DNA of 36,725 nucleotides from an archaeon (GTDB lineage: Archaea; Nanobdellota; Nanobdellia; Woesearchaeales; GW2011-AR15): contig JABHHN010000101.1 in the NCBI GenBank assembly GCA_018671515.1, forward strand, positions 1 through 36,725, given 5' to 3'. The notes under the pieces were generated by a model. That model was not told where the DNA came from. It was given only the letters and a program-made list of their open reading frames with translations, and ran no database searches. Position 1 is the stretch's first letter; every line of letters starts with the position of its first letter. Below, one piece after another: positions 5,470 through 23,685 of this stretch. Both the position numbers and the translations under genes were made by a program.

Positions 5470-6153
5470 ATGAAAGTTGGAGTTCTATTTAGTTCTGGAA
5501 AAGATTCTACTTATGTTATTCATCTAGCAAAAAAACTAGGTCATGAAATTTCTTGTCTAATAACAATGGAATCAAAAAATAATGAGAGTTATATGTTCCA
5601 CACTCCTAATATAAATCTAGCAGAATTATGTGCAGAAGCTATGGAAATACCTATAATTATTGAACAGACAAAAGGAAAAAAAGAAAGTGAATTAGAGGAT
5701 TTAAAAAAAGTAATTAATAATGCAAAAAAAAAATATGAAATAGAAGGTATAGTTACTGGTGCACTTTCTTCAACTTATCAAGGTGCAAGAATTCAAAATA
5801 TATGCAATGACCTAAATCTTTGGTGTTTTAATCCATTATGGCAGAAAAACCAGATTGAATTGCTTAATGAATTAGTAGATAATAAATTTAAAGTGATGAT
5901 TGTAGGTGTATTTGCATATCCATTTGATGAATCATGGTTAGGAGAAATAATTGATAAAGAAACAATATCAAAACTAAAAGAACTACAACAAAAATATAAG
6001 ATAAATCCAGCAGGTGAAGGTGGAGAAACAGAAAGTCTTGTAATTGATTCACCACTGCATAAAAAAAGAATCAAGATTACAAAGAGTACTAAAACATTTG
6101 AAAACTACGCGGGAGTTTTCAATATAGAAGAGGCATTTTTGGAACCAAAATGA
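5470..6153 (+). CDS. dph6: Diphthine--ammonia ligase (ATP-PPase)
   Basis: N-terminal SSGKDSTY PP-loop, GALSSTYQGARIQNIC, PAGEGGETESLVIDSPLHKKRI. Confidence 0.9.
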   Translation: MKVGVLFSSGKDSTYVIHLAKKLGHEISCLITMESKNNESYMFHTPNINLAELCAEAMEIPIIIEQTKGKKESELEDLKKVINNAKKKYEIEGIVTGALSSTYQGARIQNICNDLNLWCFNPLWQKNQIELLNELVDNKFKVMIVGVFAYPFDESWLGEIIDKETISKLKELQQKYKINPAGEGGETESLVIDSPLHKKRIKITKSTKTFENYAGVFNIEEAFLEPK

Positions 6154-6689
6154 CTACATTAATTATTAAATTAATGAAAGATGAATTGTACTACCTTGAA
6201 TTCATAAAACCAATTGTTGAGATTATTAAAAACCTTAAAACTAAAAAAACAAAATGTATATATTTTAAAAATTTAAAACAAAAAGATTTTGATGAATCTT
6301 CTAGAATAATTATCCCTGGAACTTATCTTAAGGATTTTGAATACATCAATAATATTGATGAATTTAAATGGATTAAAAATTATAATAAACAAATTTTAGG
6401 AATTTGCAGTGGAATGCAAATAATTTCTAAAATTTATGGTTCAGAATTAATTGATGATAAAGAAATTGGTGTAGTTGAATTAAGTTATAAAAAAAATCTC
6501 TTAAAAGATATCAAAAATGTATATGCATTGCATAATCTTGGAATAAAGAATGTTGATAATTTTCAAATTATTGCTAAATCCAAACAAAGTATTCTTGGAA
6601 TAAAACATAATAAAAAACCAATATATGGTATGATGTTTCACCCAGAAGTATTAAATAAAAAGATCATTGAAAAATTTATTAAAATTTAA
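6150..6689 (+). CDS. Class I glutamine amidotransferase (GMP synthase subunit A-like)
   Basis: GICSGMQ nucleophile elbow and MMFHPEV; ATGA overlap with dph6. Confidence 0.8.
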   Translation: MTTLIIKLMKDELYYLEFIKPIVEIIKNLKTKKTKCIYFKNLKQKDFDESSRIIIPGTYLKDFEYINNIDEFKWIKNYNKQILGICSGMQIISKIYGSELIDDKEIGVVELSYKKNLLKDIKNVYALHNLGIKNVDNFQIIAKSKQSILGIKHNKKPIYGMMFHPEVLNKKIIEKFIKI

Positions 6690-6884
6690 TTAATCTAAAA
6701 TAATATTATAAACTAAATTCTTAAAAATTTTCAAAATTCAAAAAATTCACTTGTAAAAATATTGAATTATTAGAATTCTCAAAAAATAAATATTAAGTTT
6801 TTGTACTAGTTAAAGGGGAAAAAATATTCAAAACTGAGTTGTGAAACCTTAAATTATTTATAATACTTAGTATTTTTATGCAAT

Positions 6885-7925
6885 ATGAAATATAAAAATA
6901 TTATTTTGTTATATATGCTTGTAATAATAATTATAATTAGTGGATGCAATCAAACTGAAGATTCAGCTCCGGAAGTATCTGAATTAACTTTTATAAAATT
7001 AGATATGGGTATTCCTTATTTTAACAATTTTCTAATAAATGAATTTTCGATACCGAATCTAGATATAAAAAAGCAAGTCTACAAAGGTGGTGCTGGAGCA
7101 GCAGGAATATCTATATATGATTTAGAGGAAGATGGAAATCTTGAATTAATAATATTAGACTTGGAAAGTATAAAAATTTTAGATCTTAATGGTAAATTGT
7201 TAGAAACTATTGATTCAACTAATGTAAAAACTATAGATCAAGTCTACAACGGTGGTGCTGGAGCAGCAGGGATAGCAGTATATGATTTAGAAAAAGATGG
7301 TAATCCCGAATTAATAATATTAGACTTAGAAGGTATAAAAATTTTAGATCTTAATGGTGATTTGATACAAACTGTTGATTCAACTAATGTAAATACTAAA
7401 GATCAAGTATCCCAAGAAGGTGCTGGAGCAGCAGGGATAACAGTATATGATTTAGAAGAAGATGGAAATCCTGAATTAATAATATTAGACTTGGAAGGAA
7501 TAAAAATTTTAAATCTTAATGGTGATTTGTTGCAAACTATTGATTCAACTAGTGTAGATACTAAGGATCTAGTCTACAAAGGAGGTGCTGGAGCAGCAGG
7601 GATAGCAGTATATGATTTAGAGAAAGATAAAAATCCTGAATTAATAATATTAGACATGGAAGGTATAAAAATTTTAGATTTTAATGGGAATTTACTACAA
7701 ACAATTGATATTAATAATATAAAAACTTCTAATCAAATCTACGAAGGAGGTGCTGGAGCAGCAGGAATAGAATTAGGATTTCTAGAATTAGGAGACGATA
7801 AAGATTTAGACATATTAATAATTGATACAAATGGAATTAAAATATTTTACAACCAATTTTGTGAAGAAAATCAAGACTTATGTATTACCGATCAAAAAGG
7901 AGAAGAAGAAGGAATAGTTGAATAA
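6885..7925 (+). CDS. Lipoprotein with 55-aa tandem repeats (VCBS/FG-GAP-like, probable beta-propeller)
   Basis: Lipobox-like ISGC; repeated GGAGAAGIxVYDLEEDGNPELIILDLEGIKILDLNGxLLQTIDSTNV. Confidence 0.8.
   Translation: MKYKNIILLYMLVIIIIISGCNQTEDSAPEVSELTFIKLDMGIPYFNNFLINEFSIPNLDIKKQVYKGGAGAAGISIYDLEEDGNLELIILDLESIKILDLNGKLLETIDSTNVKTIDQVYNGGAGAAGIAVYDLEKDGNPELIILDLEGIKILDLNGDLIQTVDSTNVNTKDQVSQEGAGAAGITVYDLEEDGNPELIILDLEGIKILNLNGDLLQTIDSTSVDTKDLVYKGGAGAAGIAVYDLEKDKNPELIILDMEGIKILDFNGNLLQTIDINNIKTSNQIYEGGAGAAGIELGFLELGDDKDLDILIIDTNGIKIFYNQFCEENQDLCITDQKGEEEGIVE
7089..7913 (+). repeat. Five in-frame tandem repeats, period exactly 165 nt
   Basis: ggtgctggagcagcagg at 7089, 7254, 7419, 7584 and 7749; last unit divergent. 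Confidence 0.9.
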
Positions 7926-8115
7926 ACCAAAAATTAAAAATTCAACTTTTTTTTATTTTTTCAAAAAATAATATATTAAGTAATTGTTATTTAAAAATAA
8001 TATTTTCTAGATAATATAATTTATCAAAAATAACAACAATCTTTATAAATGTTAAAATTTTTGTATTTATAGACGATAATTAATTCCTTTTTGGGGGGCA
8101 AATTTTATACTCATA

Positions 8116-8193
8116 GTAAAGAGTTTTTTAGAACTCTTTACAATCCTAATAACCAAACCACAATAAATAAAATTCGAATTGTTATTGTGGTTT
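8116..8193 (+). promoter_or_regulatory. Two perfect hairpins in the gyrB leader (possible ncRNA or structured 5' UTR)
   Basis: GTAAAGAGTT-6 nt-AACTCTTTAC at 8116-8141; AAACCACAATAA-15 nt-TTATTGTGGTTT at 8155-8193; TATA-like ctttataaa near 8041. Confidence 0.65.
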
Positions 8194-8237
8194 AGTATAT
8201 CACAAATCATATTAAAAATTAATCGAGAAACTACAAA

Positions 8238-10127
8238 ATGACAGATGAAGAATATAGTGCAAAAAATATCACAGTCTTAGGTGGTATTGAAGCAGTCAGA
8301 AAAAGACCTGGGATGTATATTGGTTCAACAGACATAAGAGGTTTACATCACCTTGTATATGAAATAGTTGATAATAGTATTGATGAAGCAATGATGGGAC
8401 ATTGCAGTGAAATTATTGTAATAATCCATAAAGATGGAAGTGTTTCTGTAAGTGATGATGGTCGTGGAATTCCAGTTGACAATCATCCAAAATATAACAA
8501 ACCTGTTTTAGAAATCATCATGACAAAACTTCATGCTGGTGGAAAATTTGATAAAGATTCATATAAAGTTTCAGGTGGATTACATGGAGTAGGTATTTCA
8601 GTTGTAAATGCACTTTCAAAATGGGTTGAAATTGAAGTAAAAAAAAATGGTAAAGAATATGTTCAGAAATATGAAAGAGGATTTCCAGTTACTGAATTAG
8701 AAACAGTTGGTCCTACAGATGAAAAAGGAACAAATGTTAGATTCTTCCCAGATGATGAAATATTTGATACAATCACATTCCAATTTGAAATCCTATCATC
8801 AAGATTAAGAGAATTAGCATTTTTAAACAAAGGAATAAATATTTCACTAAAAGATGAAAGAACAGATAAGGAGAAAAATTTCATGTATGAAGGTGGAATT
8901 ATTTCTTTTATTGAACATTTAAATGCTAAAAAACATCCACTACATGAACCAATATTTTTTGAAAAAGAAAAAAATGGAACAATTGTAGAAATTGCAATGC
9001 AATATACTGATGCATATAATGAAATGCTATTTTCTTTTGTGAATAATATCAACACTATTGAAGGAGGAAGTCATGTCTCAGGTTTTAAGACTGCACTTAC
9101 AAGATCAATAAATAATTATTCTGAAAAAAATAATCTAAATAAAGATTCTAAACTATCAAGCGATGATGTGCGAGAAGGGCTAACTGTTGTAATATCACTA
9201 AAAGTACCTGAACCTCAATTCGAAGGTCAGACCAAAACAAAACTTGGAAATTCTGATGTAAAAGGAATAGTAGATTCTGTAGTTTCAGAAAAACTAGGAA
9301 TGTTTTTTGAAGAAAATCCAAGTGTTGCAAAAGAAATCATAACTAAATGTGTTGGAGCATCAAAAGCAAGAGAAGCTGCAAGAAAAGCAAGAGAATTAGT
9401 GAGAAGAAAAAGTATACTTGAAGGTTCAACCCTTCCTGGAAAACTTGCTGATTGTTCAGATAAAAATCCTGAAAATTGTGAAATTTATATTGTAGAAGGA
9501 GATTCCGCAGGTGGAAGTGCTAAACAAGGAAGAGATAGAGGTTTTCAAGCAATTCTTCCATTAAGAGGAAAAATCATAAATGTTGAAAAAGCAAGAATGC
9601 ACAAAGTTCTTCAAAATAATGAAATCATAGCAATGATTACAGCATTAGGAACAAGCATAGATGATGAATTCGACATATCAAAATTAAGATATCACAAAGT
9701 AATAATCATGACAGATAGTGATGTAGATGGAGCACATATTGGAACTCTATTATTAACTTTCTTCTATAGACACCTAAAAGAATTAGTAGAAAAAGGACAT
9801 ATATATCTAGCACAACCACCATTATATCTTCTAAAAAAAGGTAAAAAAGAAATATATGCCCAAAATGAAGATATAAGAACTAAAATAACAGAAGAATGGG
9901 GTAAAGATGGACTTCATGTTCAGAGATATAAAGGTCTAGGAGAAATGAATCCAATTCAATTGTGGGACACAACCATGGACCCAGCTACAAGATTCCTAAA
10001 AAGAGTGACCATTGAAGATGCAGTAGAAGCTGATGAAACATTTGTAACATTGATGGGTTCAGAAGTTCCACCAAGAAAGAAATTCATCCAAGATCACGCA
10101 AAAGAAGTCATTAATCTAGATATTTAA
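8238..10127 (+). CDS. gyrB: DNA gyrase subunit B
   Basis: [69 protein letters not shown]. Confidence 0.97.
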
Positions 10128-10137
10128 TTTTATTTTT

Positions 10138-10422
10138 CTATAATTCTCTAAAAAATTCATATAGTGATATTAAAAAATATACTATAAAACCTGGAATTAA
10201 TACAATCACCCAATTTCTTAAAACAATTAATAATGATGTACATCCACAAATACAAGTTGCTATTGGTGATAAAAACCTAAAATCAGTACATTTAAATTGT
10301 TCCATTGGACAAGTAGCACACCTATATTTAATTGATGACAAAAAAACATACGAAATTAATGCAACTATAATAAAAATAATTATTTTCTTTTTGTTAGGTT
10401 TAAATGATTTTAAAAACAACAT
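10138..10422 (-). CDS. Small Cys-rich membrane protein, unknown
   Basis: 94 aa, two hydrophobic segments, clustered Cys (CATC...C...CICGC). Confidence 0.6.
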   Translation of the reverse strand: MLFLKSFKPNKKKIIIFIIVALISYVFLSSIKYRCATCPMEQFKCTDFRFLSPIATCICGCTSLLIVLRNWVIVLIPGFIVYFLISLYEFFREL

Positions 10423-10470
10423 TAAATTATAAATAAATTATTTGGTATTTAAATATATCTTTAACTTCAA

Positions 10471-11571
10471 TCAATGCTCTACTTCATATCTAAGAATTGC
10501 AGCATACTTTCCCATTTCTCTTAATTGGACACCTTCTCTTGTTTCAATTGATATTACTTCTACTTTTGATCCAAATTCTTCAGCCTTTTCTTCAAAACTT
10601 TCAATAACTTCATCATCTAATAATTCACAAAGTAATACCGTATCTACAACACCCAATCCTAATTTCTCCAAAACTTGCTCCCTACCATATGCAACCATTT
10701 TAGGTTTAGTTGATAATAAATCAAAAAACTTCATCATCAAATCTTTTTCCTGACCTATTTCTTCTTTAGCTAAAACATCCTGACATTTATCAACTAATTC
10801 TTGGAGACCAAAGTCACCTGTATAACTTAAATCTTTTATTGCAATGACTTTCTTTTTTACTTCATTAGTTAAATCTCCTTTTTCAAGAAGTTCATTTTTA
10901 GTCATACCAGGTCCACCAACTAAAATACCTTTAATTTCTTTTCTATGAAGAAAATCATTTTTCATATATTCAGCAACTTTTTTATAAAATTCTTTTGCAG
11001 CTCCTTCTCTTAATCTTTCAAAACGCTGTGCACTCTGTCCACCTGCTCTCATTTTCCCTGGAACATTTGATGATGTCTTTGTAAGATTGATTATTGTTTT
11101 TCCAGATAAAAGAGCAATCCTTGCATCTCTTCTATCAACTACAACCAAACCATATGTCTCCTTTCTTTCTACCATTTCTTTTAAAGAATCTAATACAAAA
11201 GCCTTATCACATCTGTATAATCTAAAAGAAACTGGTTCTGGTGGTTCTAAACTCCAAACACCAATATCTTGTGCACCTTCTCTTTCTGAAATATTTCCTG
11301 CAAAAACTGCCAAACCATGTTCTGGATTTTTTTTATACAATCTAAGATGCTGTATCATCCGCTCCAATGAGTCCTGAACATTTTTTCTTGTTGTAGAATC
11401 TTTAATATTTGATGCAGTCCCTTGTTCTTGTGCAAGATGTTGTATGATTTTTACTAATTCATATCCTGCTGGAACGTAAACTGATACTAATTCTGTGTGT
11501 CGCCCCCTGACATGATCTAATTTTTTTATGAATTTGAGTAGTTCCCTTCTTTGCTTTTTATCTATAGCCAT
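10471..11571 (-). CDS. prf1: Peptide chain release factor aRF1
   Basis: GTASNIKDSTTRKNVQ and VGGPGMTKNELLEKG (GGQ region appears as AGGQSAQRFERLRE); archaeal eRF1-family architecture. Confidence 0.95.
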   Translation of the reverse strand: MAIDKKQRRELLKFIKKLDHVRGRHTELVSVYVPAGYELVKIIQHLAQEQGTASNIKDSTTRKNVQDSLERMIQHLRLYKKNPEHGLAVFAGNISEREGAQDIGVWSLEPPEPVSFRLYRCDKAFVLDSLKEMVERKETYGLVVVDRRDARIALLSGKTIINLTKTSSNVPGKMRAGGQSAQRFERLREGAAKEFYKKVAEYMKNDFLHRKEIKGILVGGPGMTKNELLEKGDLTNEVKKKVIAIKDLSYTGDFGLQELVDKCQDVLAKEEIGQEKDLMMKFFDLLSTKPKMVAYGREQVLEKLGLGVVDTVLLCELLDDEVIESFEEKAEEFGSKVEVISIETREGVQLREMGKYAAILRYEVEH

Positions 11572-11668
11572 ATGTATAGACGGAAAAAGGGTTACTATAT
11601 AAAAATTACGCGAAAAATTAAGTTTTAGTTAAGATAGTTTTAAATTTCCACTATTTCTTTTCTTTATT

Positions 11669-12325
11669 ATGCACTATTTAATTAAAAATTCATTTATTGA
11701 AATGTATCCAGACAAAGAATTAAATTTTGATGCTAAATTAAAGTATTCAAAAGCATTCAAAGGGTATAATGCAAATGTCAAATATTCAAGAAACAAAGAT
11801 TTTTTTGAATTCAGATTAAGCTATAATTGGAAAGATGTATCAAGTGAAATCAAGATGGGGATAATACAGAATCTTTTCAATAGAGTAAATAAAACAAATG
11901 TAAAAACACTAAATATTGAAATGTATAATATTTTTTTAAAAAAACTAACTGATTATGTTCCAGTAACTAAGACTGATGAAATTCTAGAAAAATCATTTGA
12001 TAGAGTAAATGAAACGTATTTTGACAATTTGATGATTAAACCAAACCTCATTTTTGGAGGAAAAAATATACAAACACTTGGAACTTATTCGTATGGAACA
12101 GATACAATAATGATATCAAAACTTCTCATAAAAGACTTAAATCTTCTTGATTATGTAATGTATCATGAAATGCTCCATAAAAAACTAAAATATCAACAAA
12201 AAAATGGAAGAACACAACATCATTCTCCAGAATTTAAAAGACTTGAAAGATTATACTTTGACAAAGATGCTGAAAGTAAATTGAATAAATTTGTTAGAAA
12301 ACATAAATTTAAAGGATGGTTTTAA
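11669..12325 (+). CDS. SprT/M48-like putative zinc metallopeptidase
   Basis: YHEMLHKKL (HExxH) followed by HHSPEFKRLERL. Confidence 0.75.
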   Translation: MHYLIKNSFIEMYPDKELNFDAKLKYSKAFKGYNANVKYSRNKDFFEFRLSYNWKDVSSEIKMGIIQNLFNRVNKTNVKTLNIEMYNIFLKKLTDYVPVTKTDEILEKSFDRVNETYFDNLMIKPNLIFGGKNIQTLGTYSYGTDTIMISKLLIKDLNLLDYVMYHEMLHKKLKYQQKNGRTQHHSPEFKRLERLYFDKDAESKLNKFVRKHKFKGWF

Positions 12326-15300
12326 GGTATATGTTTATAAAGAAAAAATGCTACATTATCTTTTGTATTTCCAACTGATAAATCTGAAAGCCATTTTGAA
12401 ACTTGTTCTATTGGTTGTGTATCTATCCTGTGTTTAAATTGGTTCCATAAATCTGGTCTTTTATTAAAAAGACTTTTGTACCAATCAGATGACAAGAAAA
12501 AAACATCACCATAATCCATTTGAATTCGACTATTTTGATTTGGTATCAGTTGAATAGGTGTAACTCGTGATTCTCTTCTTCCAAATACATTTTCAACTAT
12601 TTCTTTCCCTACTGCATTTTTATAAACTTCTGGATCAGCCAATTGTTCCCAACCTGCATTTTGTTTTAATCTATACACCCCTGGATCTCCAGCATAACGA
12701 AAATCTATAAAATCACCATTAACTTGAGCTCCAACTCCTACCATTGGTTGACCTCTATCAATTACTGCGTCACTTGCTATATGAAGAGCATCATCAAAAT
12801 CAATCCCATTTGCTATTGCTTTATCAAACGCATCAAAAAATATTACATTGCCTTCTCCAGGTATAAAATCCCTATGTTGTGGAGTAGAAACTTCATCTAG
12901 TACTAATATATAATCACCAATATCTCCTTTAAATATACCAATTGCATCTTGATTATTTTGTTTATACAATCTAAAATAATCAGGGTCCCAACCCTTTGGT
13001 ATATTTACAGAATTTCCATGACCTTCCAAAGCAACATAACCTTCCGCAATTCCATTTTTTACTTTCCCCCTTAATTTTCCTCTATAAACACCTGCAAGTG
13101 CCTCAGCATTTCCTGATAATTGTGTTTGCATATTTGAACCTGTAAGATCTACTACTCGAGCTTCAAAATAATTTTCCATAGAATAAATCCAATTATCTAT
13201 ATCTAATTGATTTCTCATACCTCTCATTTGTTTTCTTGCTGCAGATCTTATTATTTCATCAGTATTTTGAACACTTAAATCAAATAACTGTCTTAAAGCA
13301 CCTTGTCTTATAGCATCATCAGAAGTCTCAATAGCTATTCTTGCCAATCCATTTATTGCTTTTGAACTACCTTGACCTCCTTGCATTGCAACCTTCCTCA
13401 ACATCGCAAATTGAGTTGCAATATCATCAACAGCACCTTTAGCAGGTCTTACCAATCTTGAAATAATATCATCAACATTATTTGAACTAACAGACCTTAC
13501 TTTTCTTGATCCTCCTACTATCCTATTTCTCATTTTTGTAAGTTTTTCAACCATATCATCTGAAAAACTACCACCTCTATTCTTTACTGATTGAAGAACC
13601 TGATCTGCTCGATTTGCCAACCTATTTGTCTTAGCAGAGGTAGTTTGTGAAGGAAATTGTCCAATGAGTTTATCATATTCTATCTGAAGACCAAAAATTT
13701 CATATTCAATTTCTCCTACTTGTTTATACAATGGATTTTTATTCAACATTTCATTAATTCGATCTTTTATAATTCCAATTTTTTTTGCATTTTCTTCATT
13801 CATTCGTTTTAATTCAGAAGGCTTTAAATTATTCAGATAATAATTTTCTGCTCTCTGCCTTCTCAAATCAATTAACTCCTCAAGTAATTCATGTTGTTCA
13901 TCTTGAAGAGCGGTCATTTTTTCATTACTCATTATTTCATCAACAATGTCTTGTTTTTTCTTTACTTTTGCTAATAAGTCATCAGCCTTAGCAATAGCTG
14001 ATTCATCTGCAAAACTCAATCCTGCAGATGATTTTCTAGCTTTCCATGAACTTCTTAATTTTCTTGTAGTATCTCTTGCTTGTTTTGCAAGATTATTACC
14101 TTTTGGATTAAAATCTTCAACCATCAATTCCCAATCCCAAAATTTAACATCTTCACTTCCACCTAAATGACTTTCTCTTCCAATTTTCGCCCATTTCCCA
14201 CCATATCTTTCCAATGCAAGTGGACCAACTATAAACATTAACATCTGCACAGTCCTTCCAACACATTCACCTTTTTCAGACTTTTTTTTAAGTTCTTCAA
14301 CATATTTTTCTTCACTACTCATGGTTTCATCAGGGTTATCAAATGCAGTTTTACATTCACCAAATATATTTCCAATATCAAGTAAAGTTACTCCTAATCC
14401 ACCAAATAATAATGTTACCATTACTGTACCTTTAGCAAATCTACCAGCTCCTGTCAATACTCTTGCAAAACGACTCTCGGAGGCAAAAAATTTTGCTATA
14501 AAAGGCATATCACTCAAAAATTTAAACATTGTACCAACTTTAGATATAGCACCAAACATCCAATTCCCAACTATAATTCCTCCAATTGCACCTATAACAA
14601 AATCTGCAATCTGCAACAAATTTATTGTTCCAATATTTTTCTTTATTTTTTCTTGACCATCCATAGCAAGCTGTAATTCTTTTGAATAATCAGGATCTTT
14701 TTCATTAAGTTCAATTATACTTGCCCATTGTCTTCCTGCAATTTCAGTTAGCATACTTTTTTTTGCACCATAGATTTTATCATGCCAAAATGGACCTTTT
14801 CCTGCGCCATTTGGATATTTATCTAATAAATTTTGATATGTTTTTAATGCACTATCTTCAAAAATTCCCCTAAATTCATTATCTTCATTTTCAGTCCAAC
14901 CTCCCATAGATTCCATTATTACAAAATAATCAAGCCAACCATATCCAAACAAAATCAAACCTGCATTTTCTTCATTTATTGCTTTAAATAATGGAACTGA
15001 AGGTGCATAAGTATTCACTGACTTAATCAATGAATTTATTTTATTCTTTCCAACTTCTTTATCTCTAGAATCTTTATCTGGGTAATCAGCATTTAATTCA
15101 AATGAAATTTCTTTAGAAAAACCTAATGCTTTTATTACAGCATCTTCTTTCTCTTCTTGTGTAGATATCCCTGCAATACCCAATTCATCCCTAATTTCTT
15201 GACAGTTTACTTGACAATCATCTGAAATATATTTTATTGAATTATATATTGTACTCCAACTCTTATCTTGTATTTCATTATTCTCATCAATTACTTGACC

Positions 15301-17652
15301 TGTAATAAAATTCTTCTTCAAATTTTCTATCTTTTGAGCAAGTTCATTATCTTCAGGCGGAGCAAATTCTCCAGGGTCTAACAAAGGTTGTCCATAAAGA
15401 CTACTCTTTAAAATTAAGAATGACTGTTCTATATCAAAAAGTTTTTCATCTGATCTTTTTAAACCATCAAAATATTTTTCTGTTCTTTTTCCACTTCCAA
15501 TTAAAAGAAGATATTTAAATGGATTTGTTAAAGAAGTAAAAAAAATCTCAAGACCACTAGCACCTATTCCTACTGAATCTTCAAGTAATATCTGTCTATA
15601 ATTTTCAGTAATTCCTAATGCAAGTTGAGTATTAGTTATACTTGCTTCAAGATAATATTTTATTACATCATTTCTTATATTTTTTTCATATGTGTTAATT
15701 GCATTTTTGAATACATCTGGCTCATTAATTGCTTCAAGAAACTGTTTTTGTTGTTCTTCACCCATATTTGATTTTGCATATTGTTCTATATAATTTTTAA
15801 ATGATTCTTTATATTCTTCCAATTCAGAATCTTTACAAAAATCCAAAGGTGAACCATATCCCTTAAAATTTTCAGACCTATAACATTTAGATCTAGCTTT
15901 GAGAAATCTTTTAAAAGCTTCTGTATATTCACTATCTATTCTTTCAAGTTCTTCAATTCTTTTTGAACCTAATAATTCATTTAATCCAATTCTTATTTCT
16001 TCTTCATTATCAGAAAAAACTAATAAATTTGCAAAACTTCCTTGTGAATATGTTCTTTGTTTTGCAACACATTCTCCATTTTTATCATATATCCTTACAT
16101 TTAATGTATACGCACCTGTAACTTTAGGCACAAATGATCCAGTATATTTTGCAATTCCATCTATAAACATTACTTTATTTTCTAATAATGGTATTGTCTG
16201 CTCTCCTGTGTCTTCATTAAATAAGCTTATTTCTATTTCTCTTTCTTCATCAGATATACTAAATTGGTCTGTTTCTAAATTTGTATCTTCCTGATTATCT
16301 GTAGATGAACTTATTGATGAAGTAGAATCAAAAATTATTTCAAATTTTATTTCATCAAATGCATCAAAAACTTGAACATTCTGATTATTCTCAAGATTAG
16401 TGGTTATTACAATAGATTCATCACATGTTCTTTTATAATCATCAAACAAAGGATCATCTGGTGGTACAAGGTCTTCTGTTGAGAGTATATCATAAAACGC
16501 ATCCAATGCTTTTTCATCTAAATCAGCATAATTTGTGATTTCATTGCATTGTTTTTCTTCATCTTCAATTGGTGGACAATCTTCAATACTTTTTATAACT
16601 TCAAGATCAACATCAGGTGTACATTCTAATGCATAATCAATTTCGCCATTAGACACAAATACTCTTATTACCCTACAATCATTTAAAGTCCTTTCTACTG
16701 TGGTTTTTGAAGAATCGGAGCATGTATTAGTTCCTAAAAAACCAGGATAATTTTCCAAATTTAGAGGAATGTCTGGATTATAATTTTCAATTTTTTTTAA
16801 AAATTCTCTCTTATTTGCTAACCAATTTAATTCATCTCTTACATCCAAATCTGGATCTGTAAACCCAATTGGATCACCATTAATATTATAATTACAATCA
16901 GGATATCCTGGGTTATCCCAATTTCCACTAGGTGGATTGTAATCATCTTCACCATCAGGTCCGTATCTACAAAGGTAGTTTATCCTATCTTGTAATGTAC
17001 AATCATTATTATCAATATTTTCTTTACATTTATCTGGATCTTCCAAACATTTTTCTATTTCTTCATTTGCTTGTGTTAAATCCATATCAAACCCATTATC
17101 TTCTCCGGGCATAATATCTTCTTCACAGATTCCTTCATTTGAAATACAATTACATTCCTTAAATAAAAATAAATATTTTTTATCATCCTGTTCAAATGGT
17201 TTAGATAAACAAATTTGACTAATTTCATTATTTTCATTACATGAAAGACTATCCTTTCCAATACCTAAAGGACATTCTAACTCTTTATCATAGCTTAATC
17301 GTTTTACTAGATAATCAGAAGAAATTGAAGATTTACATTGAGATTCAACAATTGCTATATCATCATCTGTATCACAACTATCTAAACATCTCTTTATATA
17401 TAATGAACCCGCATCAGTATTATCACTAAGGCAAGTCCAACTAAATAAATCCTGATTATTATTACACCAAAATTTCTTATTTCCTGATGGAGAATAACTG
17501 TTATGATATTTTTCATCAATTTCTTCACATTTTAATTTAGAATCTATATAACCCATAGGTAGATTTGAGGTATCTGCAATTGTCACCGTAATAGGAATAG
17601 TTGCAGTAAGAATAATATAAATCATAAACAACGAGAGTATTTTTTTTCTCAT
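12322..17652 (-). CDS. Giant exported membrane protein with C-terminal PP2C-like (PPM) domain
   Basis: 1776 aa; N-terminal signal sequence, Cys-rich ectodomain, about 3 hydrophobic segments near nt 14200-14630, coiled-coil and HEAT-like segments, C-terminal NQDA...YILVLDEVS...GVGAQV...AGDPGVYRL...GDVFFLSSDW...KDNVAFFLYK. Confidence 0.8.
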   Translation of the reverse strand: MRKKILSLFMIYIILTATIPITVTIADTSNLPMGYIDSKLKCEEIDEKYHNSYSPSGNKKFWCNNNQDLFSWTCLSDNTDAGSLYIKRCLDSCDTDDDIAIVESQCKSSISSDYLVKRLSYDKELECPLGIGKDSLSCNENNEISQICLSKPFEQDDKKYLFLFKECNCISNEGICEEDIMPGEDNGFDMDLTQANEEIEKCLEDPDKCKENIDNNDCTLQDRINYLCRYGPDGEDDYNPPSGNWDNPGYPDCNYNINGDPIGFTDPDLDVRDELNWLANKREFLKKIENYNPDIPLNLENYPGFLGTNTCSDSSKTTVERTLNDCRVIRVFVSNGEIDYALECTPDVDLEVIKSIEDCPPIEDEEKQCNEITNYADLDEKALDAFYDILSTEDLVPPDDPLFDDYKRTCDESIVITTNLENNQNVQVFDAFDEIKFEIIFDSTSSISSSTDNQEDTNLETDQFSISDEEREIEISLFNEDTGEQTIPLLENKVMFIDGIAKYTGSFVPKVTGAYTLNVRIYDKNGECVAKQRTYSQGSFANLLVFSDNEEEIRIGLNELLGSKRIEELERIDSEYTEAFKRFLKARSKCYRSENFKGYGSPLDFCKDSELEEYKESFKNYIEQYAKSNMGEEQQKQFLEAINEPDVFKNAINTYEKNIRNDVIKYYLEASITNTQLALGITENYRQILLEDSVGIGASGLEIFFTSLTNPFKYLLLIGSGKRTEKYFDGLKRSDEKLFDIEQSFLILKSSLYGQPLLDPGEFAPPEDNELAQKIENLKKNFITGQVIDENNEIQDKSWSTIYNSIKYISDDCQVNCQEIRDELGIAGISTQEEKEDAVIKALGFSKEISFELNADYPDKDSRDKEVGKNKINSLIKSVNTYAPSVPLFKAINEENAGLILFGYGWLDYFVIMESMGGWTENEDNEFRGIFEDSALKTYQNLLDKYPNGAGKGPFWHDKIYGAKKSMLTEIAGRQWASIIELNEKDPDYSKELQLAMDGQEKIKKNIGTINLLQIADFVIGAIGGIIVGNWMFGAISKVGTMFKFLSDMPFIAKFFASESRFARVLTGAGRFAKGTVMVTLLFGGLGVTLLDIGNIFGECKTAFDNPDETMSSEEKYVEELKKKSEKGECVGRTVQMLMFIVGPLALERYGGKWAKIGRESHLGGSEDVKFWDWELMVEDFNPKGNNLAKQARDTTRKLRSSWKARKSSAGLSFADESAIAKADDLLAKVKKKQDIVDEIMSNEKMTALQDEQHELLEELIDLRRQRAENYYLNNLKPSELKRMNEENAKKIGIIKDRINEMLNKNPLYKQVGEIEYEIFGLQIEYDKLIGQFPSQTTSAKTNRLANRADQVLQSVKNRGGSFSDDMVEKLTKMRNRIVGGSRKVRSVSSNNVDDIISRLVRPAKGAVDDIATQFAMLRKVAMQGGQGSSKAINGLARIAIETSDDAIRQGALRQLFDLSVQNTDEIIRSAARKQMRGMRNQLDIDNWIYSMENYFEARVVDLTGSNMQTQLSGNAEALAGVYRGKLRGKVKNGIAEGYVALEGHGNSVNIPKGWDPDYFRLYKQNNQDAIGIFKGDIGDYILVLDEVSTPQHRDFIPGEGNVIFFDAFDKAIANGIDFDDALHIASDAVIDRGQPMVGVGAQVNGDFIDFRYAGDPGVYRLKQNAGWEQLADPEVYKNAVGKEIVENVFGRRESRVTPIQLIPNQNSRIQMDYGDVFFLSSDWYKSLFNKRPDLWNQFKHRIDTQPIEQVSKWLSDLSVGNTKDNVAFFLYKHIP

Positions 17653-17653
17653 A

Positions 17654-18487
17654 TTAAATTTCCTTTATCATATGTAAAGCTGCAAACACAAAATCATATT
17701 CTTTATTTTCTGAAATAGTATCTTTTATTATCCATAAAGTAATAGGACCATCATCATAATAAAATTTAACATCTATTCCTTCAGGATAATCATTGTAATA
17801 CATAAAATTCAATGACATTGAAAGAGGGTAAATCAACTTATCAGAAATTTTTTCTTCAATTCTTTTATCTCGCTTTAAATCAGCAATCAATAATTGATTC
17901 ATAATTTTTTTTGTAGTTTCATGTATCATACCATACCTAATTGGTAAAAGTACAGCAAATTCATTTAGATTTTCAATATTATTATTATACTCTTTTACTT
18001 CAACAAATTGTTTCATTTTTATAAGAACATTTTTTGTTCCTATTTTTGTTGATACTGTTGGCATATTAACATATTCAACTGTTTTTCCAAATCTTAAAAA
18101 ATCTTCGTCTTCAAAACAATCCTGAATTTTACTTTGCACAAAATTTGATACTTCTATCTCCGTAGTCTCTAAACTATTCAGATACTGAGTCCCTTGTTTA
18201 TAGATAATATATAAATAATTACCATTTTCAATATACAATGGTTTAACATCTAATGGTAAAATCAAAAATCCACCTCTAGCTCCTAACAATGTAAATGCAT
18301 CCTCTCCTGCATCTTTAAGACAAGAAGTTACATATGATTTAATATAATCTACATTTGTTAATTTATTTGACTCTTGTTCAATTTTTGATTTTGACATATT
18401 ATTTGAAATATGAGTGCCAATAATCAATATTGAAGATATAAATAATGCCAAGAGTATTATTGTTGTAATATGTCCTTTTTTCTCCAT
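17654..18487 (-). CDS. Secreted or N-terminally anchored protein, pilin-like N-terminus, unknown
   Basis: MEKKGHITTIILLALFISSILIIGTHISNNM N-terminal helix after charged residues; 1-nt gap to the giant ORF. Confidence 0.75.
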   Translation of the reverse strand: MEKKGHITTIILLALFISSILIIGTHISNNMSKSKIEQESNKLTNVDYIKSYVTSCLKDAGEDAFTLLGARGGFLILPLDVKPLYIENGNYLYIIYKQGTQYLNSLETTEIEVSNFVQSKIQDCFEDEDFLRFGKTVEYVNMPTVSTKIGTKNVLIKMKQFVEVKEYNNNIENLNEFAVLLPIRYGMIHETTKKIMNQLLIADLKRDKRIEEKISDKLIYPLSMSLNFMYYNDYPEGIDVKFYYDDGPITLWIIKDTISENKEYDFVFAALHMIKEI

Positions 18488-18622
18488 CCATTAAAAATTG
18501 AAATAAACTAGTATATAATATTTATTGATTTAAATGTAAAAATTTTTAAAAATTACCAAAAATAATATAAAGCTATGCTCCCAATATCTTTATAAATCAT
18601 AATAAAATCCTAGAGGTTGAAA

Positions 18623-19024
18623 ATGACAGGCGATTGGAAAAACACACACGTAGGCTCCCTAAAAAAGGGCAATTATGTAATAATTGATGACATAGCATGC
18701 ATAGTTTCAGATATGAAAATAAGCAGACCTGGAAAACATGGTCATGCTAAAGTTAATCTAACTGCAACTGGTATGCTTGATGGTAAAAAAAGGCAAACAG
18801 TTATGCCAGGACATGATAATATCAAAGTTCCTATAATAGGGAAAAAAAATGCACAAGTACTTTCCGTTCAAGGAAAAAAAGCTAGTGTCATGGATATGGA
18901 AACTTATGAAACTTTTGATTTAGATATCCCTAGTGAACTTGATGGTCAAGTCAGTGATGGTATGACTGTTGTTTACTGGATAATACTAAATGACTTAGTA
19001 ATGAAACAAGTAAAAAATGAGTAA
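18623..19024 (+). CDS. eif5A: Translation initiation factor aIF5A
   Basis: SRPGKHGHAK hypusination loop, full-length family similarity; SD-like gaggttg upstream. Confidence 0.95.
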   Translation: MTGDWKNTHVGSLKKGNYVIIDDIACIVSDMKISRPGKHGHAKVNLTATGMLDGKKRQTVMPGHDNIKVPIIGKKNAQVLSVQGKKASVMDMETYETFDLDIPSELDGQVSDGMTVVYWIILNDLVMKQVKNE

Positions 19025-19059
19025 TTATTATTATTAAAAATATATAACAGGTAAAAAAA

Positions 19060-19224
19060 ATGGTTAGATTCCCAGAAGCAGATAAAAGATTGTTCAAAAA
19101 CATATTCGTATGTAGAAGAACAAAAAGGAAAATTAGAGCTGATCCACTTAAAGTAAATCAGAAAAAGGTTCGAGGAAGAGGTAAAAATGCAACAAGAAAC
19201 CTTAGACCTCTTAGAAAGAAATAA
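19060..19224 (+). CDS. rpl40e: Ribosomal protein eL40, cysteine-depleted variant
   Basis: 54 aa, absent from the ORF track: MVRFPEADKRLFKNIFVCRRTKRKIRADPLKVNQKKVRGRGKNATRNLRPLRKK; matches the archaeal eL40 start and LRP-RKK end but has one Cys; downstream of aIF5A. Confidence 0.8.
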   Translation: MVRFPEADKRLFKNIFVCRRTKRKIRADPLKVNQKKVRGRGKNATRNLRPLRKK

Positions 19225-19274
19225 TTTTTTTCAAATAAAAACCTTTTTATAATAATATTTCTTGAAAATTAATA

Positions 19275-20558
19275 ATGAACGAATTAAAAAGAGTTGAAAA
19301 CGTAACAATAATTTTATTACTAATTTTTCTTGGTTTCTTATCAACACAAGAACTTCCTAGTATCTTTTCTACACAAGTAGTAATTGGATTCTACGTTTTA
19401 TTCATATTATTATTATTCATTAATAAAGAAAAATTTGACGTACAGGCAAAAATTGTCTTTCTTTACAGAACTAAATTCAGCTTAAATTTAATGGATAAAT
19501 TATCCAATAACTTTAGAGGTCTAATCAGATTCATGGGTGTTTTTGGAATTATTATCGCATATATTGGTTTTGCAGTAACAACTGTATTTTTTGTAAAGCA
19601 AGCCTATGATATTGTAATAAACCCTCAATCCGCAATTCAAGTTTCTCCAATTATACCTGGTGTTGAATTAGTTGGCACAGGTCTTACATTTCCATTAGTA
19701 ATTGGTTGGATATCATTATTTATCATAATATGCGTACATGAATTTTCTCATGGAGTTGTTGCAAGAGCTTTTAACATACCTGTCAAATCATCAGGATTTG
19801 TGTTTTTTGGCCCAATACCTGGAGCTTTTGTTGAACCTGATGAAAAAGTATTATTAAAAAAGAAAGCATATAAACAATTAGCAGTATTTGCTGCAGGTCC
19901 TGTATCTAATATATTCTTAACTGCAATTATGATGTTGATATCTCTATTTGTTCTAGTTCCCATATTTAATTCATTTACATATTCTGAAGGAATAATCATC
20001 ACACCTATGGATGATTCCTCACTTCCATTATATAAAGCAGGAATACATGAAAAAACATTATTAAAAGCTATAAATGGTAATGATACATTAGATTATGCAA
20101 GTCTTGATTCTATGTTAAACTCATTAAAACCTAATGAAGAAGCAATATTAAACATTGATGGAAAAGACGTTGAAATCACCTTAGCACCCCATCCTGATAA
20201 TGCGTCAAAACCTTATATTGGATTTAATATGTTAAGGCCAAAATTATCATCATTTTTACCAATTGGATTTTCTAAAATATCACCAAAAAAAAATAGTTTT
20301 GATCAAAAGTTTTTCTTTCATCTTATAATATGGTTAGATGAATTATTCTTTTGGATTGCATTTATCAGTATCAATGTTGGTATGTTTAACCTTCTTCCAC
20401 TATTCATTACTGATGGTGCAAGGATGCTATTGCTTAATTTTGGTGAGAAAAAAATGATTGTATGGAAAGTAATAAACTTCGTAATGCTTACATTAATTTT
20501 CACAATAATTTTCTTACCAATAATTAGAAATTTCATTCCTGGTTTCTTTGTTTTTTAA
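19275..20558 (+). CDS. Site-2 protease (M50) family membrane metalloprotease with PDZ-like insert
   Basis: HEFSHGVVARAF, FGPIPGAFVEPDEK, NLLPLFITDGARM. Confidence 0.92.
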   Translation: MNELKRVENVTIILLLIFLGFLSTQELPSIFSTQVVIGFYVLFILLLFINKEKFDVQAKIVFLYRTKFSLNLMDKLSNNFRGLIRFMGVFGIIIAYIGFAVTTVFFVKQAYDIVINPQSAIQVSPIIPGVELVGTGLTFPLVIGWISLFIIICVHEFSHGVVARAFNIPVKSSGFVFFGPIPGAFVEPDEKVLLKKKAYKQLAVFAAGPVSNIFLTAIMMLISLFVLVPIFNSFTYSEGIIITPMDDSSLPLYKAGIHEKTLLKAINGNDTLDYASLDSMLNSLKPNEEAILNIDGKDVEITLAPHPDNASKPYIGFNMLRPKLSSFLPIGFSKISPKKNSFDQKFFFHLIIWLDELFFWIAFISINVGMFNLLPLFITDGARMLLLNFGEKKMIVWKVINFVMLTLIFTIIFLPIIRNFIPGFFVF

Positions 20559-20653
20559 TAAAAAAAATTCTTTTTAAAATATTCATCATTAGTCCACAAT
20601 ATTTAAAAAGAAATTTCTATAAAATAATATTATAAAATTATTAGGTGATACAT

Positions 20654-21829
20654 ATGAATAAAAAAATTGGATTATTTTTAACACTTTTTGTAGTGTTAAG
20701 CATTAGTGTTTTTGCACAAGGACAAAAAAATGACATGATGAGAAATCAAGCTGATATTGATCATCAAATTGAAGGTGGAGAAATGGAAGATTTAACCACG
20801 GATGAAATTGATGGACTGCTTTTAATGAGAGAAGAAGAAAAATTAGCACATGATGTCTATACTACATTATATGATAAATGGTCAATGCAAATTTTTACAA
20901 ATATTGCAAGATCAGAGCAGACACACACTAACGCAGTAAAAGAATTACTAGATGCTTATAGTATAGATGATCCAGTCAGTACTGATGAAGTAGGTGTATT
21001 TAATAATGAAGAATTAGCACAGCTTTATGACACATTAGTTGAACAAGGCAGCCAAAGTTTATTAGATGCATTCATTGTAGGTGCAATAATAGAAGATTTA
21101 GATATCAAAGACTTAAATGAATTATTAGAATCTACAACAAATACTGATATTATTTTAGTATATGAAAACCTTAGAAAAGGCTCAAGAAACCATATGAGAT
21201 CATTTATTAAACAAATTGAAAGCCAAGATGGTGAATATACTGCACAATATATTTCTACTGAAGAATTAGAAGAAATAATTGGTGGTTCACAAGAAAGTGG
21301 TCCAATACTAACAGATGATAGTGATATTGATTTACCGGCATTAAGAAATAGAATGGGTAGACAAAATAATAAAGATACTGGCAAACAACAATTAGGAAAA
21401 ATGTCTGAATTTGGAAATAAATTCAAAGGACAAAATGGTGCTAAATTAGGTGCAAATGGAGTAATTAATAACCTAAAAAACATGAATGAATACACAGATA
21501 GTCCTTTAGGAAAAAAAGTTTCTGAATTTGCAAAAAACTATCAAAATTCATACAATAAAGCACTAGGATATGAAAAAGAAATTGAATCAAGAAATGGATT
21601 TTCAAGATTTCTTTTTGGTGGAAATAAAAAACTTGCTCAAAATCTAAACGAAGAAGTAAAACAAAATAAAGAACAAGTTCAATCATTATTATCAGATTTA
21701 GAAACTGCTGATGAAGAAGAAACAACTTTAATAAGAGAACAAATAAAAGAACTTCAAACCGAATCAAACAGAATGGAAGGAATTGCAAATCAAGAAGCAA
21801 AAAAGAAAGGCTTGTTTAGATGGTGGTAA
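20654..21829 (+). CDS. Secreted DUF2202 (ferritin-like) protein with C-terminal coiled-coil extension
   Basis: Signal peptide; LLLMREEEKLAHDVYTTLYDKWSMQIFTNIARSEQTHTNAVKELL, RKGSRNHMRSFIKQIE. Confidence 0.88.
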   Translation: MNKKIGLFLTLFVVLSISVFAQGQKNDMMRNQADIDHQIEGGEMEDLTTDEIDGLLLMREEEKLAHDVYTTLYDKWSMQIFTNIARSEQTHTNAVKELLDAYSIDDPVSTDEVGVFNNEELAQLYDTLVEQGSQSLLDAFIVGAIIEDLDIKDLNELLESTTNTDIILVYENLRKGSRNHMRSFIKQIESQDGEYTAQYISTEELEEIIGGSQESGPILTDDSDIDLPALRNRMGRQNNKDTGKQQLGKMSEFGNKFKGQNGAKLGANGVINNLKNMNEYTDSPLGKKVSEFAKNYQNSYNKALGYEKEIESRNGFSRFLFGGNKKLAQNLNEEVKQNKEQVQSLLSDLETADEEETTLIREQIKELQTESNRMEGIANQEAKKKGLFRWW

Positions 21830-21886
21830 ATTTTTTTTCTTTTTTTAATTTTTATTAAATCATTTTTATCTATAATAACGAATCTA

Positions 21887-21932
21887 TCCGTTCGGACCTA
21901 TCCCCACGTTAAAACGTGGAGTATTATGCTCC
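21887..21932. other. GC-rich hairpin cluster (candidate ncRNA or IS200/IS605-like end remnant)
   Basis: TCCG-TT-CGGA; CCACGTT-AA-AACGTGG; GGAG-tattatg-CTCC packed into 46 bp of an AT-rich intergenic region. Confidence 0.45.
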
Positions 21933-22046
21933 TCACATTTCGATAAATTTTACTTTGCATCCAATAACCAGAAGAAAAACATTTTCATCTACACCATTAT
22001 TATATAGCAATTAATATTTCTAATTTTATATTATATTAAATTTAAG

Positions 22047-23363
22047 ATGATATTTGACGAATTAGCAGAAAGAATAAAGTGGGCTTTAATTAAAGAAAAT
22101 TTCAGTGTTCCAACATCTATCCAAGAGAAAGCTATCCCTATTATTTTGAAAGGAAAGGATTTAATTGGCATTGCACAAACAGGCACTGGAAAAACTGCAT
22201 CTTTTGTATTACCAATTCTCCATTTACTTTCAATAAATATAAAATCAATTAAACCAAAGTCACCTTTAGTTTTAGTTTTATCTCCAACAAGAGAACTTGC
22301 TATGCAAATTGACAAAACTTTTGAGATGTTTGGTAAGCATTTAAAAATTAAACATACAGCAATATTTGGTGGAGTTAGTCAAGAACCTCAAATTAAAATT
22401 CTATCTAAAGGAATCCAAGTATTAACTGCAACACCTGGGCGACTTCTAGATCTTATTTCACATGATAAAGTTAATTTATCTTCTGTTGAATACATTGTTT
22501 TAGATGAAGCTCATATGATGCTTGATATGGGTTTTTTAACTACAGTAAAAGAAATATATAAACAAGTCTCAAAAAAAAAGCAATCATTATTTTTTTGTGC
22601 AACAATAACACCAGAAATTCTTAAATTGGCAAATGAATTATTAAATGATCCTAGTACTGTTAAAATTGAAGCACAAAAAGCATCTAATTTAATTTCTCAA
22701 AAAGTATGTTATTTATATATTGATAAAAAAAATGCATTATTATTAGAATTAATTAAAAAAACAGGTAAAACAATAGTTTTCTTGCGTACAAAATATAAAA
22801 CCGATGTTGTTGCAAAACTATTAATTAAAAATAATATTTCTGCTGCTTCAATTCATAGTGATAAAAATCAAGAAGAAAGAACAAAAGTTATTGAAAATTT
22901 TAAATCAGGCAAAACTAAAGTTTTAGTTGCAACTGATATTGCTGCTCGTGGTATTCATATTGATAATGTATCATGTGTAATAAATTATAACACACCAAAT
23001 TATCCTGATGTATATGTTAATAGAATTGGTAGAACTGCAAGAGCAGGTAAATTAGGTGTATCTTACACATTTTGTGGCTTAGAAGAAAGAGAATCAATAA
23101 AAAAAATTGAAGAATACACATCTCTTAAAATGGAAGTAGTTCATCACACTTATTATGCTTCAAAGGTTGAAAATGCAACACCTGATGATATTGTTGCTTC
23201 TGTTAAGAAGAAATGTACTCATAAATTTGTTGCTAAAAAATCTAAAAAAAAGAGTGAATTTTATGTTCCACCAATTAACCAAAAAAAATCTAAAAGACCA
23301 CGTGGAGTGCATGCAAGAAAAGGTACTAAAAAACTTAAAAAACATAATAAAAAAAGAAAATAA
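22047..23363 (+). CDS. DEAD-box RNA helicase
   Basis: AQTGTGKT, PTRELA, TPGRLLD, DEAH (VLDEAHMML), ATDIAARGIHID, NRIGRTARAG; basic C-terminal tail. Confidence 0.95.
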   Translation: MIFDELAERIKWALIKENFSVPTSIQEKAIPIILKGKDLIGIAQTGTGKTASFVLPILHLLSINIKSIKPKSPLVLVLSPTRELAMQIDKTFEMFGKHLKIKHTAIFGGVSQEPQIKILSKGIQVLTATPGRLLDLISHDKVNLSSVEYIVLDEAHMMLDMGFLTTVKEIYKQVSKKKQSLFFCATITPEILKLANELLNDPSTVKIEAQKASNLISQKVCYLYIDKKNALLLELIKKTGKTIVFLRTKYKTDVVAKLLIKNNISAASIHSDKNQEERTKVIENFKSGKTKVLVATDIAARGIHIDNVSCVINYNTPNYPDVYVNRIGRTARAGKLGVSYTFCGLEERESIKKIEEYTSLKMEVVHHTYYASKVENATPDDIVASVKKKCTHKFVAKKSKKKSEFYVPPINQKKSKRPRGVHARKGTKKLKKHNKKRK

Positions 23364-23469
23364 AAATCATTCTCTTTAATATATAAATTTTAAAAACTTT
23401 TAAACTAAAAGTTTAATTTTTTTAACTTGATATTTAGTTACTTATGTTTTAGTATATGAAATGAACTCA

Positions 23470-23591
23470 TTAAAATGGGGCTACGCGGATTCCCTAATGA
23501 ACGAAGTGAATGGGTTGAGGAACGTCAGTGACACAACGTTCGAATCAAGTAAAAACATTTTAAAGAATTTAAAATGGGGCTACGCGGATTC
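23470..23591 (+). repeat. 23-bp direct repeat, second copy covering the 3' end of tRNA-Pro
   Basis: ttaaaatggggctacgcggattc at 23470-23492 and 23569-23591, period 99 bp. Confidence 0.9.
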
Positions 23592-23648
23592 GAACCGCGG
23601 TTGAGTGGCCCCAAACCACTAGTGATAGCCAAGCTACACCATAGCCCC
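23575..23648 (-). tRNA. tRNA-Pro(UGG)
   Basis: Minus strand GGGGCTATGGTGTAGCTTGGCTATCACTAGTGGTTTGGGGCCACTCAACCGCGGTTCGAATCCGCGTAGCCCCA; acceptor, anticodon (AGTGG TTTGGGG CCACT) and T arms fold; intronless, CCA not encoded. Confidence 0.97.
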
Positions 23649-23685
23649 AAATAATGACTCTGAAAATTTATGATACTTTTAAAAC

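What the first reader, a model, noticed from the sequence alone, without database searches (positions are those of the whole stretch)
12322..18487. Candidate undescribed transmembrane locus: giant 1776-aa exported protein plus secreted partner
Seen: two minus-strand ORFs separated by 1 nt. The first has a pilin-like N-terminal helix. The second has a signal sequence, a long Cys-rich N-terminal region, a mid-protein cluster of about three hydrophobic segments (nt ~14200-14630), coiled-coil and HEAT-like helical segments, then a globular C-terminal domain. Inference: with a cleaved signal and three TMs the C-terminus would be cytosolic, giving an ectodomain-to-cytosol signalling or secretion architecture. 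I recognise no named family covering the whole protein.
Basis: partly seen in the sequence, partly recalled or inferred. Interest (0 to 1): 0.75.

Follow-up and report, generated by a model that had tools for sequence, protein, structure and literature searches.

The report
Archaeal pilin-like partner plus exported phosphatase giant
In a tiny uncultured archaeon (Woesearchaeota), a membrane-anchored pilin-like protein is encoded directly before a very large secreted protein that ends in a protein-phosphatase-like domain; this gene pair recurs across the group with different enzyme endings, which suggests a widespread, undescribed kit for acting on neighbouring cells.

Summary
The two ORFs are real: 277 aa, then 1776 aa, 1 nt apart, minus strand. 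The genome is Woesearchaeota-like. The 277-aa protein belongs to a widespread family with a class III (prepilin) signal, two conserved cysteines and a confidently modelled ectodomain that matches no solved fold. In 60 of 68 distinct relatives the next gene is a signal-peptide protein of at least 250 aa (background 120/750). Those downstream proteins share little sequence. At the syntenic site in a sister genome the neighbouring genes are 55-74% identical, yet the giant is unrecognisable and ends in a calcineurin-like phosphoesterase. Elsewhere the endings are lytic transglycosylase, C25 or M64 peptidase, or PP2C inside proteins of 6464 aa or more. The window giant ends in a PP2C-like domain that Pfam misses (calibrated profile alignment; all five metal Asp kept). 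It has no N-glycosylation sequon (13 expected), two convincing TM segments rather than three, and a basic loop between them. Best reading: a Sec-exported, pilin-partnered protein carrying a phosphatase payload for a neighbouring cell. Delivery is inferred, not shown.

The parts
17654..18487 (-). Pilin-like partner, 277 aa (class III signal/TM helix residues 1-36; ectodomain with conserved Cys56 and Cys124)
   Evidence: ORF; relatives in 80/100 order genomes; alignments; AF2 model pLDDT 84.2, pTM 0.78; no PDB fold match at E<=0.001
18380..18487 (-). class III (prepilin-type) signal and N-terminal membrane helix of the partner
   Evidence: alignment motif KKGQITxFII; helix 6-36 in the model
12322..17652 (-). 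Giant exported protein, 1776 aa, 1 nt downstream of the partner
   Evidence: ORF; no Pfam/NCBIfam/PHROG/PDB family; no relative by sequence in 100 order genomes or genome contigs
17575..17652 (-). Sec-type signal peptide of the giant (about residues 1-26)
   Evidence: KD 2.28 at residues 5-23, MRKK n-region
15835..17529 (-). Cys-rich, acidic N-terminal region (residues 42-606, 26 Cys)
14545..14625 (-). hydrophobic segment 1 (residues 1010-1036)
   Evidence: KD 1.98, GES 1.94, WW +5.1 kcal
14428..14544 (-). basic 39-residue loop between the two segments (residues 1037-1075, net charge about +5)
   Evidence: sequence printed
14362..14427 (-). hydrophobic segment 2 (residues 1076-1097)
   Evidence: KD 1.77, GES 1.6, WW +3.2 kcal
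14209..14265 (-). weak third hydrophobic stretch (residues 1130-1148), not convincing as a TM segment
   Evidence: KD 1.31, GES 0.62, WW -0.08
13093..14115 (-). charged, probably helical/HEAT-like linker region (residues about 1180-1520)
   Evidence: sequence inspection only (print-out); no Pfam support
12325..13080 (-). C-terminal PP2C-like phosphatase domain (tested stretch residues 1525-1776; aligned core 1565-1775; Asp1569, 1586, 1656, 1723, 1765)
   Evidence: hhalign to 29 PP2C domains: prob 87.5, score 42.7, 193 columns; best true decoy 24.9; residues

Best explanation
The locus is one copy of a widespread Woesearchaeota module. A dedicated class III-signal, pilin-like membrane protein with an ectodomain of no known fold is encoded together with a Sec-exported multidomain protein that it presumably docks, anchors or escorts at the cell surface. 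In this copy the exported protein has a Cys-rich, probably disulfide-bonded N-terminal region for surface or target binding, a hydrophobic hairpin, a helical linker and a C-terminal PP2C-type phosphatase domain. The whole chain, phosphatase included, is exported and kept free of N-glycans. A PP2C needs phosphoprotein substrates, so the most likely purpose is to act on or inside a neighbouring or host cell, with the hairpin as a membrane-insertion element. Shown (by sequence): ORFs, gene-pair conservation, PP2C-like domain, absence of sequons, exchange of C-terminal domains between relatives. Inferred: physical pairing, phosphatase activity, delivery into another cell.
For: Gene pair: 60/68 unique short-form partners are followed within 150 nt on the same strand by a signal-peptide protein of at least 250 aa, versus 120/750 background, often overlapping by 4 nt. 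Export of the whole chain: 0 sequons versus 13.2 expected in the giant; pooled downstream proteins (without four glycoprotein-like outliers) 59 versus 320.6, while the reversed motif is 334; partners 0.94, soluble genes 0.99 of expectation; an STT3/AglB gene is present. PP2C. The same partner family precedes a 6464-aa giant with Pfam PP2C+PPDK_N, whose only sequon lies in its signal peptide (44.7 expected), and a giant locus of 3055 + at least 6247 aa with PP2C+FHA+HEAT. C-terminal exchange: L157 shares residues 1-397 with L036, but its 493-725 matches the SLT proteins L038/L123; other endings are calcineurin-like, C25, SLT, M64. Fast divergence at a syntenic site: SprT 55%, eRF1 66-74%, partner 30%, giant undetectable. 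Type IV filament ATPases, platform proteins and a prepilin peptidase are in the genome.
Against: No direct evidence of interaction, activity or delivery. Sequon avoidance is shared by other exported proteins of this genome, including lipoproteins, so it shows export, not effector function. The PP2C match is below Pfam cut-offs and invisible to plain HMMER; the Arg of motif 1 is Lys1564 and the Gly of DG is Glu1587, so it could be inactive. No immunity gene lies next to it. The domain-swap case comes from relatives, not from the window protein, whose N-terminal region matches nothing.
Confidence: 0.5

Rival explanations
1. Surface ecto-enzyme without delivery: the pilin-like partner and the hairpin hold a large extracellular protein on the archaeon's own membrane, where the phosphatase-like domain (or, in relatives, hydrolases and peptidases) works on extracellular matter for scavenging, adhesion or envelope turnover.
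For: Signal peptides, anchored partner, two-TM hairpin with a basic inside loop, whole-chain sequon avoidance as in ordinary exported lipoproteins, and mostly extracellular-type enzymes in relatives such as SLT, C25, M64.
Against: PP2C, and in relatives FHA, PPDK and HAD domains, normally have cytosolic substrates or need ATP; extracellular phosphoprotein substrates are not obvious.
Confidence: 0.28
2. One reading: cleaved signal, three TM segments, C-terminal PP2C in the archaeon's own cytosol, giving ectodomain-to-cytosol signalling.
For: A weak third hydrophobic stretch exists (residues 1130-1148, KD 1.31); PP2C domains are normally cytosolic signalling enzymes and the order also has clusters of ordinary non-exported PP2C genes.
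Against: The third stretch fails all three scales; no sequons in residues 1149-1776 (0 versus 3.5, p = 0.019); the 6464-aa relative, with PP2C near its end, has no sequon in its mature chain.
Confidence: 0.15
3. The C-terminal domain keeps the PP2C fold but is catalytically dead and serves as a binding module, the protein being essentially an adhesin.
For: Motif 1 Arg is Lys1564, the DG glycine is Glu1587, and the GGH and SDG glycines are missing.
Against: All five metal-coordinating Asp positions are kept, which is unlikely in a long-decayed enzyme.
Confidence: 0.2

Closest known systems
SPEARE proteins of Nanohaloarchaeota (PMC6642349)
   Same: Very long exported DPANN proteins with binding regions and an enzymatic end, proposed to act on a host; pilus-like genes noted in the same lineages including Woesearchaeota.
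   Different: SPEARE carry serine protease, laminin-G and a type III restriction-like C-terminus said to be cytoplasmic; none of these was found here, and no pilin-like partner gene is described for them in the passages read.
PP2C/PPM metal-dependent protein phosphatases (Pfam PF13672/PF00481)
   Same: C-terminal domain aligns end to end with DPANN PP2Cs and keeps all five metal Asp residues.
   Different: Below Pfam thresholds, altered motif 1 Arg and DG/SDG glycines, and located in an exported 1776-aa protein rather than a cytosolic enzyme.
Polymorphic toxin systems (PMC3482391)
   Same: In relatives, shared N-terminal regions with exchanged C-terminal enzymes.
   Different: No adjacent immunity gene, many endings are hydrolases or peptidases, and the constant element is a separate pilin-like gene.
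Type IV pilins / minor pilins of type IV filaments
   Same: Class III signal followed by a hydrophobic helix; assembly ATPase, platform and prepilin peptidase genes are in the genome.
   Different: Ectodomain (two conserved Cys) matches no solved structure, and each copy is paired with its own exported protein.
Woesearchaeota lytic transglycosylases and 'vampiristic' genes (PMC9723730); archaeal peptidoglycan hydrolases (PMC12352652)
   Same: SLT (GH23-type) domains in Woesearchaeota, as in downstream proteins L037, L038, L157.
   Different: Those papers list the enzymes alone; pairing with a pilin-like partner is not mentioned in the passages read.

Membership tests
PP2C/PPM phosphatase | Profile similarity over the whole domain, above calibrated background | tested here: met
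   hhalign score 42.7, 193 collinear columns; best of about 299 true decoys 24.9 (five real PP2Cs that slipped into the decoy set scored higher, as they should)
PP2C/PPM phosphatase | Pfam gathering threshold for PF13672/PF00481/PF07228 | tested here: not met
   no PP2C hit even at E up to 5; none in G000
PP2C/PPM phosphatase | Metal-binding Asp residues of the five motifs | tested here: met
   D1569, D1586, D1656, D1723, D1765 align with the motif Asp
PP2C/PPM phosphatase | Motif 1 Arg and Gly of the DG motif | tested here: not met
   Lys1564 and Glu1587 in their place
PP2C/PPM phosphatase | Mg/Mn-dependent phosphatase activity | not testable with these tools
   needs the purified domain
SPEARE protein | Serine protease, laminin-G adhesion and type III restriction-like domains | tested here: not met
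   no such Pfam domain; definition from PMC6642349
SPEARE protein | C-terminal region in the cytoplasm behind a TM segment near the C-terminus | tested here: inconclusive
   two TM segments mid-protein, and sequon avoidance speaks for an outside C-terminus
Type IV pilin family (partner) | Class III signal with N-terminal hydrophobic helix | tested here: met
   the window copy reads KKGH where most read KKGQ
Type IV pilin family (partner) | Known pilin globular fold | tested here: not met
   Foldseek versus PDB: no match at E<=0.001, TM-scores of listed matches at most 0.33
Type IV pilin family (partner) | Filament assembly genes in the genome | tested here: met
   4 T2SSE, 6 T2SSF, 1 prepilin peptidase matches
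Polymorphic toxin system | Constant N-terminal region with exchangeable C-terminal enzyme | tested here: inconclusive
   met in relatives: L157 and L036 share the N-terminal half while L157's C-terminus matches SLT proteins L038/L123; the window giant itself has no relatives to test
Polymorphic toxin system | Immunity gene next to the toxin | tested here: not met
   next gene is a convergent SprT-like protein on the other strand

The most novel reading that the evidence does not exclude
A DPANN-specific, undescribed delivery system: a family of pilin-like proteins of new fold, each paired with its own exported, glycan-free, rapidly diverging protein that carries an exchangeable enzyme (PP2C, calcineurin-like phosphoesterase, lytic transglycosylase, peptidase) into or onto partner cells. 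Giants of 6464 aa or more with PP2C, FHA and dikinase domains would be the largest members.
Probability: 0.35. Interest if true: 0.9.

Novelty: new variant of a known kind. Interest (0 to 1): 0.68.

Why it matters
How DPANN archaea act on their hosts or prey is an open question with few molecular candidates. This locus leads to a gene pair present in most genomes of a large order, with a partner family that can be found by sequence even though its cargo cannot. That turns an unreadable set of 'hypothetical' giants into a list that can be collected, typed by C-terminal enzyme and tested. If PP2C and related cytosolic-type enzymes are really exported by these archaea, it would point to protein effectors working in the cells they live on. 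The absence of sequons gives a cheap, alignment-free way to judge topology of such proteins.

Tried and rejected
Direct sequence relatives of the giant: none in 100 order genomes, in genome contigs, or among 88 other downstream proteins. C-terminal domain as query over 292 order genomes gave 11 weak matches; those inspected were chance hits, including a 1772-aa ORF that looked promising by length. A plain HMMER profile of PP2Cs does not separate the C-terminal domain from shuffles; only the deeper 29-domain profile with hhalign does. Single-sequence AlphaFold of the C-terminal domain failed (pLDDT 37) and was not interpreted. Foldseek of the partner against viral models gave one E = 9.6e-4 match with TM 0.17, rejected as meaningless. 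A partner alignment of 17 sequences was too diverse for a scan; a four-sequence one worked. Sequon avoidance as an effector signature was considered and rejected as too strong: other exported proteins show it too. Some of the eight counted failures of the gene-pair test are ORF-calling artefacts (for example G013C14 and L049, where manual reading shows the secreted gene), so 60/68 is conservative.

Full report
What is there. The window holds two minus-strand ORFs, 277 aa (17654-18487) and 1776 aa (12322-17652), 1 nt apart. Neighbours are ordinary archaeal genes: eRF1, an SprT-like protein convergent with the giant, aIF5A-like, an M50 peptidase and gyrB. The genome G000 is about 1.88 Mb in 120 contigs.

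The giant alone is an orphan. Pfam, NCBIfam and PHROGs give nothing above cut-off, PDB nothing, and no relative is found in 100 genomes of the order or in genome contigs.

The partner is not an orphan. It matches in 80 of 100 order genomes. An alignment shows a class III (prepilin) signal KKGQITxFIIIGL, two conserved cysteines (C56, C124 in the window copy) and a conserved C-terminal FA motif. A 46-sequence AlphaFold model is confident (pLDDT 84.2, pTM 0.78): a long N-terminal helix and a mixed alpha/beta ectodomain. Foldseek finds no PDB match at E<=0.001. The genome has type IV filament ATPases, platform proteins and a prepilin peptidase.

The pair is conserved. In the first 20 loci, the partner is followed by a signal-peptide-bearing protein of very different lengths and sequences. 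A larger set (78 named loci, essentially all Woesearchaeota, Nanoarchaeota or Pacearchaeota by title) gives 60 of 68 distinct short-form partners followed within 150 nt on the same strand by a signal-peptide protein of at least 250 aa, against 120 of 750 other gene neighbours (Fisher p = 9e-35). A longer form of the partner (450-1200 aa) shows 26 of 40.

The cargo diverges and its C-terminus is exchanged. In same-family genome G001 (L033) the SprT and eRF1 neighbours are 55% and 66-74% identical and the partner 30%, but the 1308-aa protein in the giant's place is not alignable with it and ends in a calcineurin-like phosphoesterase. Other downstream proteins end in SLT transglycosylase, C25 or M64 peptidase. 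L157 shares its first 397 residues with L036, while its residues 493-725 match the SLT region of L038 and L123.

The window giant ends in a PP2C-like domain. PP2C domains occur in two far larger proteins downstream of partner homologues: 6464 aa with PP2C, PPDK_N and PEP-utilizers (G013), and 3055 plus at least 6247 aa with PP2C, FHA, HAD, HEAT and beta-lactamase-like domains (G048, probably one gene with a frame break). A profile of 29 PP2C domains from the order aligns to residues 1565-1775 of the window giant over 193 columns (hhalign prob 87.5, score 42.7). Of 305 tested sequences the only ones above it were five true PP2Cs that had slipped into the decoys; the best real decoy scored 24.9, the shuffles 12.6 +/- 2.3. 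Asp1569, 1586, 1656, 1723 and 1765 fall on the five metal-site positions; the motif 1 Arg is Lys and the DG glycine is Glu. This is PP2C-like in fold with good support; activity is uncertain.

Topology. Three hydrophobicity scales agree on two internal TM-like segments (1010-1036, 1076-1097) separated by a strongly basic 39-residue loop; the third candidate (1130-1148) is weak. That predicts both ends outside. Independent evidence comes from N-glycosylation sequons. The giant has none, against 13.2 expected by shuffling; residues 1149-1776 have 0 against 3.5 (p = 0.019). Downstream proteins as a class are depleted (125 against 357; without four enriched outliers 59 against 320.6), while the reversed motif is not (334), nor are partners (0.94), soluble proteins (0.99), or other signal-peptide proteins taken together (0.93). 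The 6464-aa protein has one sequon against 44.7 expected, and that one lies in its signal peptide. An STT3 oligosaccharyltransferase gene is present. In the own genome, signal-peptide proteins split into sequon-rich and sequon-free groups, so the property marks export without glycosylation, not a special effector class.

Interpretation. The sequence evidence supports a wholly exported, pilin-partnered multidomain protein with a C-terminal PP2C-like domain. That the domain acts on or in another cell is inference: PP2C, FHA and dikinase domains normally work in cytosol, these archaea are thought to live on other cells, and the cargo shows fast divergence and C-terminal exchange as seen in conflict proteins. 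The main rival is an anchored surface enzyme with no delivery.

Compared with known things. SPEARE proteins (PMC6642349) are the nearest published DPANN giants, but their defining domains are absent here. Lytic transglycosylases in Woesearchaeota were reported as predation genes (PMC9723730, PMC12352652) without the partner gene in the passages read. Literature searches did not turn up a description of the gene pair or of sequon avoidance in archaea, but the library holds open-licence papers only.

Noticed in passing
L093+L094 (G013:C14), merged coordinates 4398-23792: 6464-aa exported protein in a DPANN archaeon with PP2C, PPDK_N and PEP-utilizers domains near its C-terminus, 12 Cys almost all in the first 800 residues, and no sequon in the mature chain.
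   Followed up: partly
L095+L096 (G048:C25), 4150 to beyond 31999: Giant locus of 3055 aa plus at least 6247 aa in overlapping frames (probably one gene with a frame break), with PP2C, FHA, HAD, HEAT and beta-lactamase-like domains; Cys occur in close pairs.
   Followed up: partly
whole genome G000, for example L236:2-2557, L200:2246-5518, window 35406-36725: Exported proteins of this archaeon split into sequon-free and sequon-rich groups, which may be usable as a topology and localisation signal.
   Followed up: partly
L033:6045-8663: eRF1 homologue of 872 aa whose two halves match the window's 366-aa eRF1, split by about 504 extra residues after residue 181, close to the GGQ motif; looks like an intein.
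   Followed up: no
L039:812-4024, L122, L126, L136 and others: A long form of the partner family (450-1200 aa, about 650-800 typical) shares the N-terminal 200 residues and is often followed by exported proteins of 1000-2300 aa, suggesting a second version of the module.
   Followed up: partly
L099-L107: Cytosolic PP2C genes of the order sit in clusters of similar-sized genes, possibly kinase/FHA signalling clusters.
   Followed up: no
window 20645-21829: Exported DUF2202 (ferritin-like) protein, also with no sequon (0 versus 3.6 expected).
   Followed up: no
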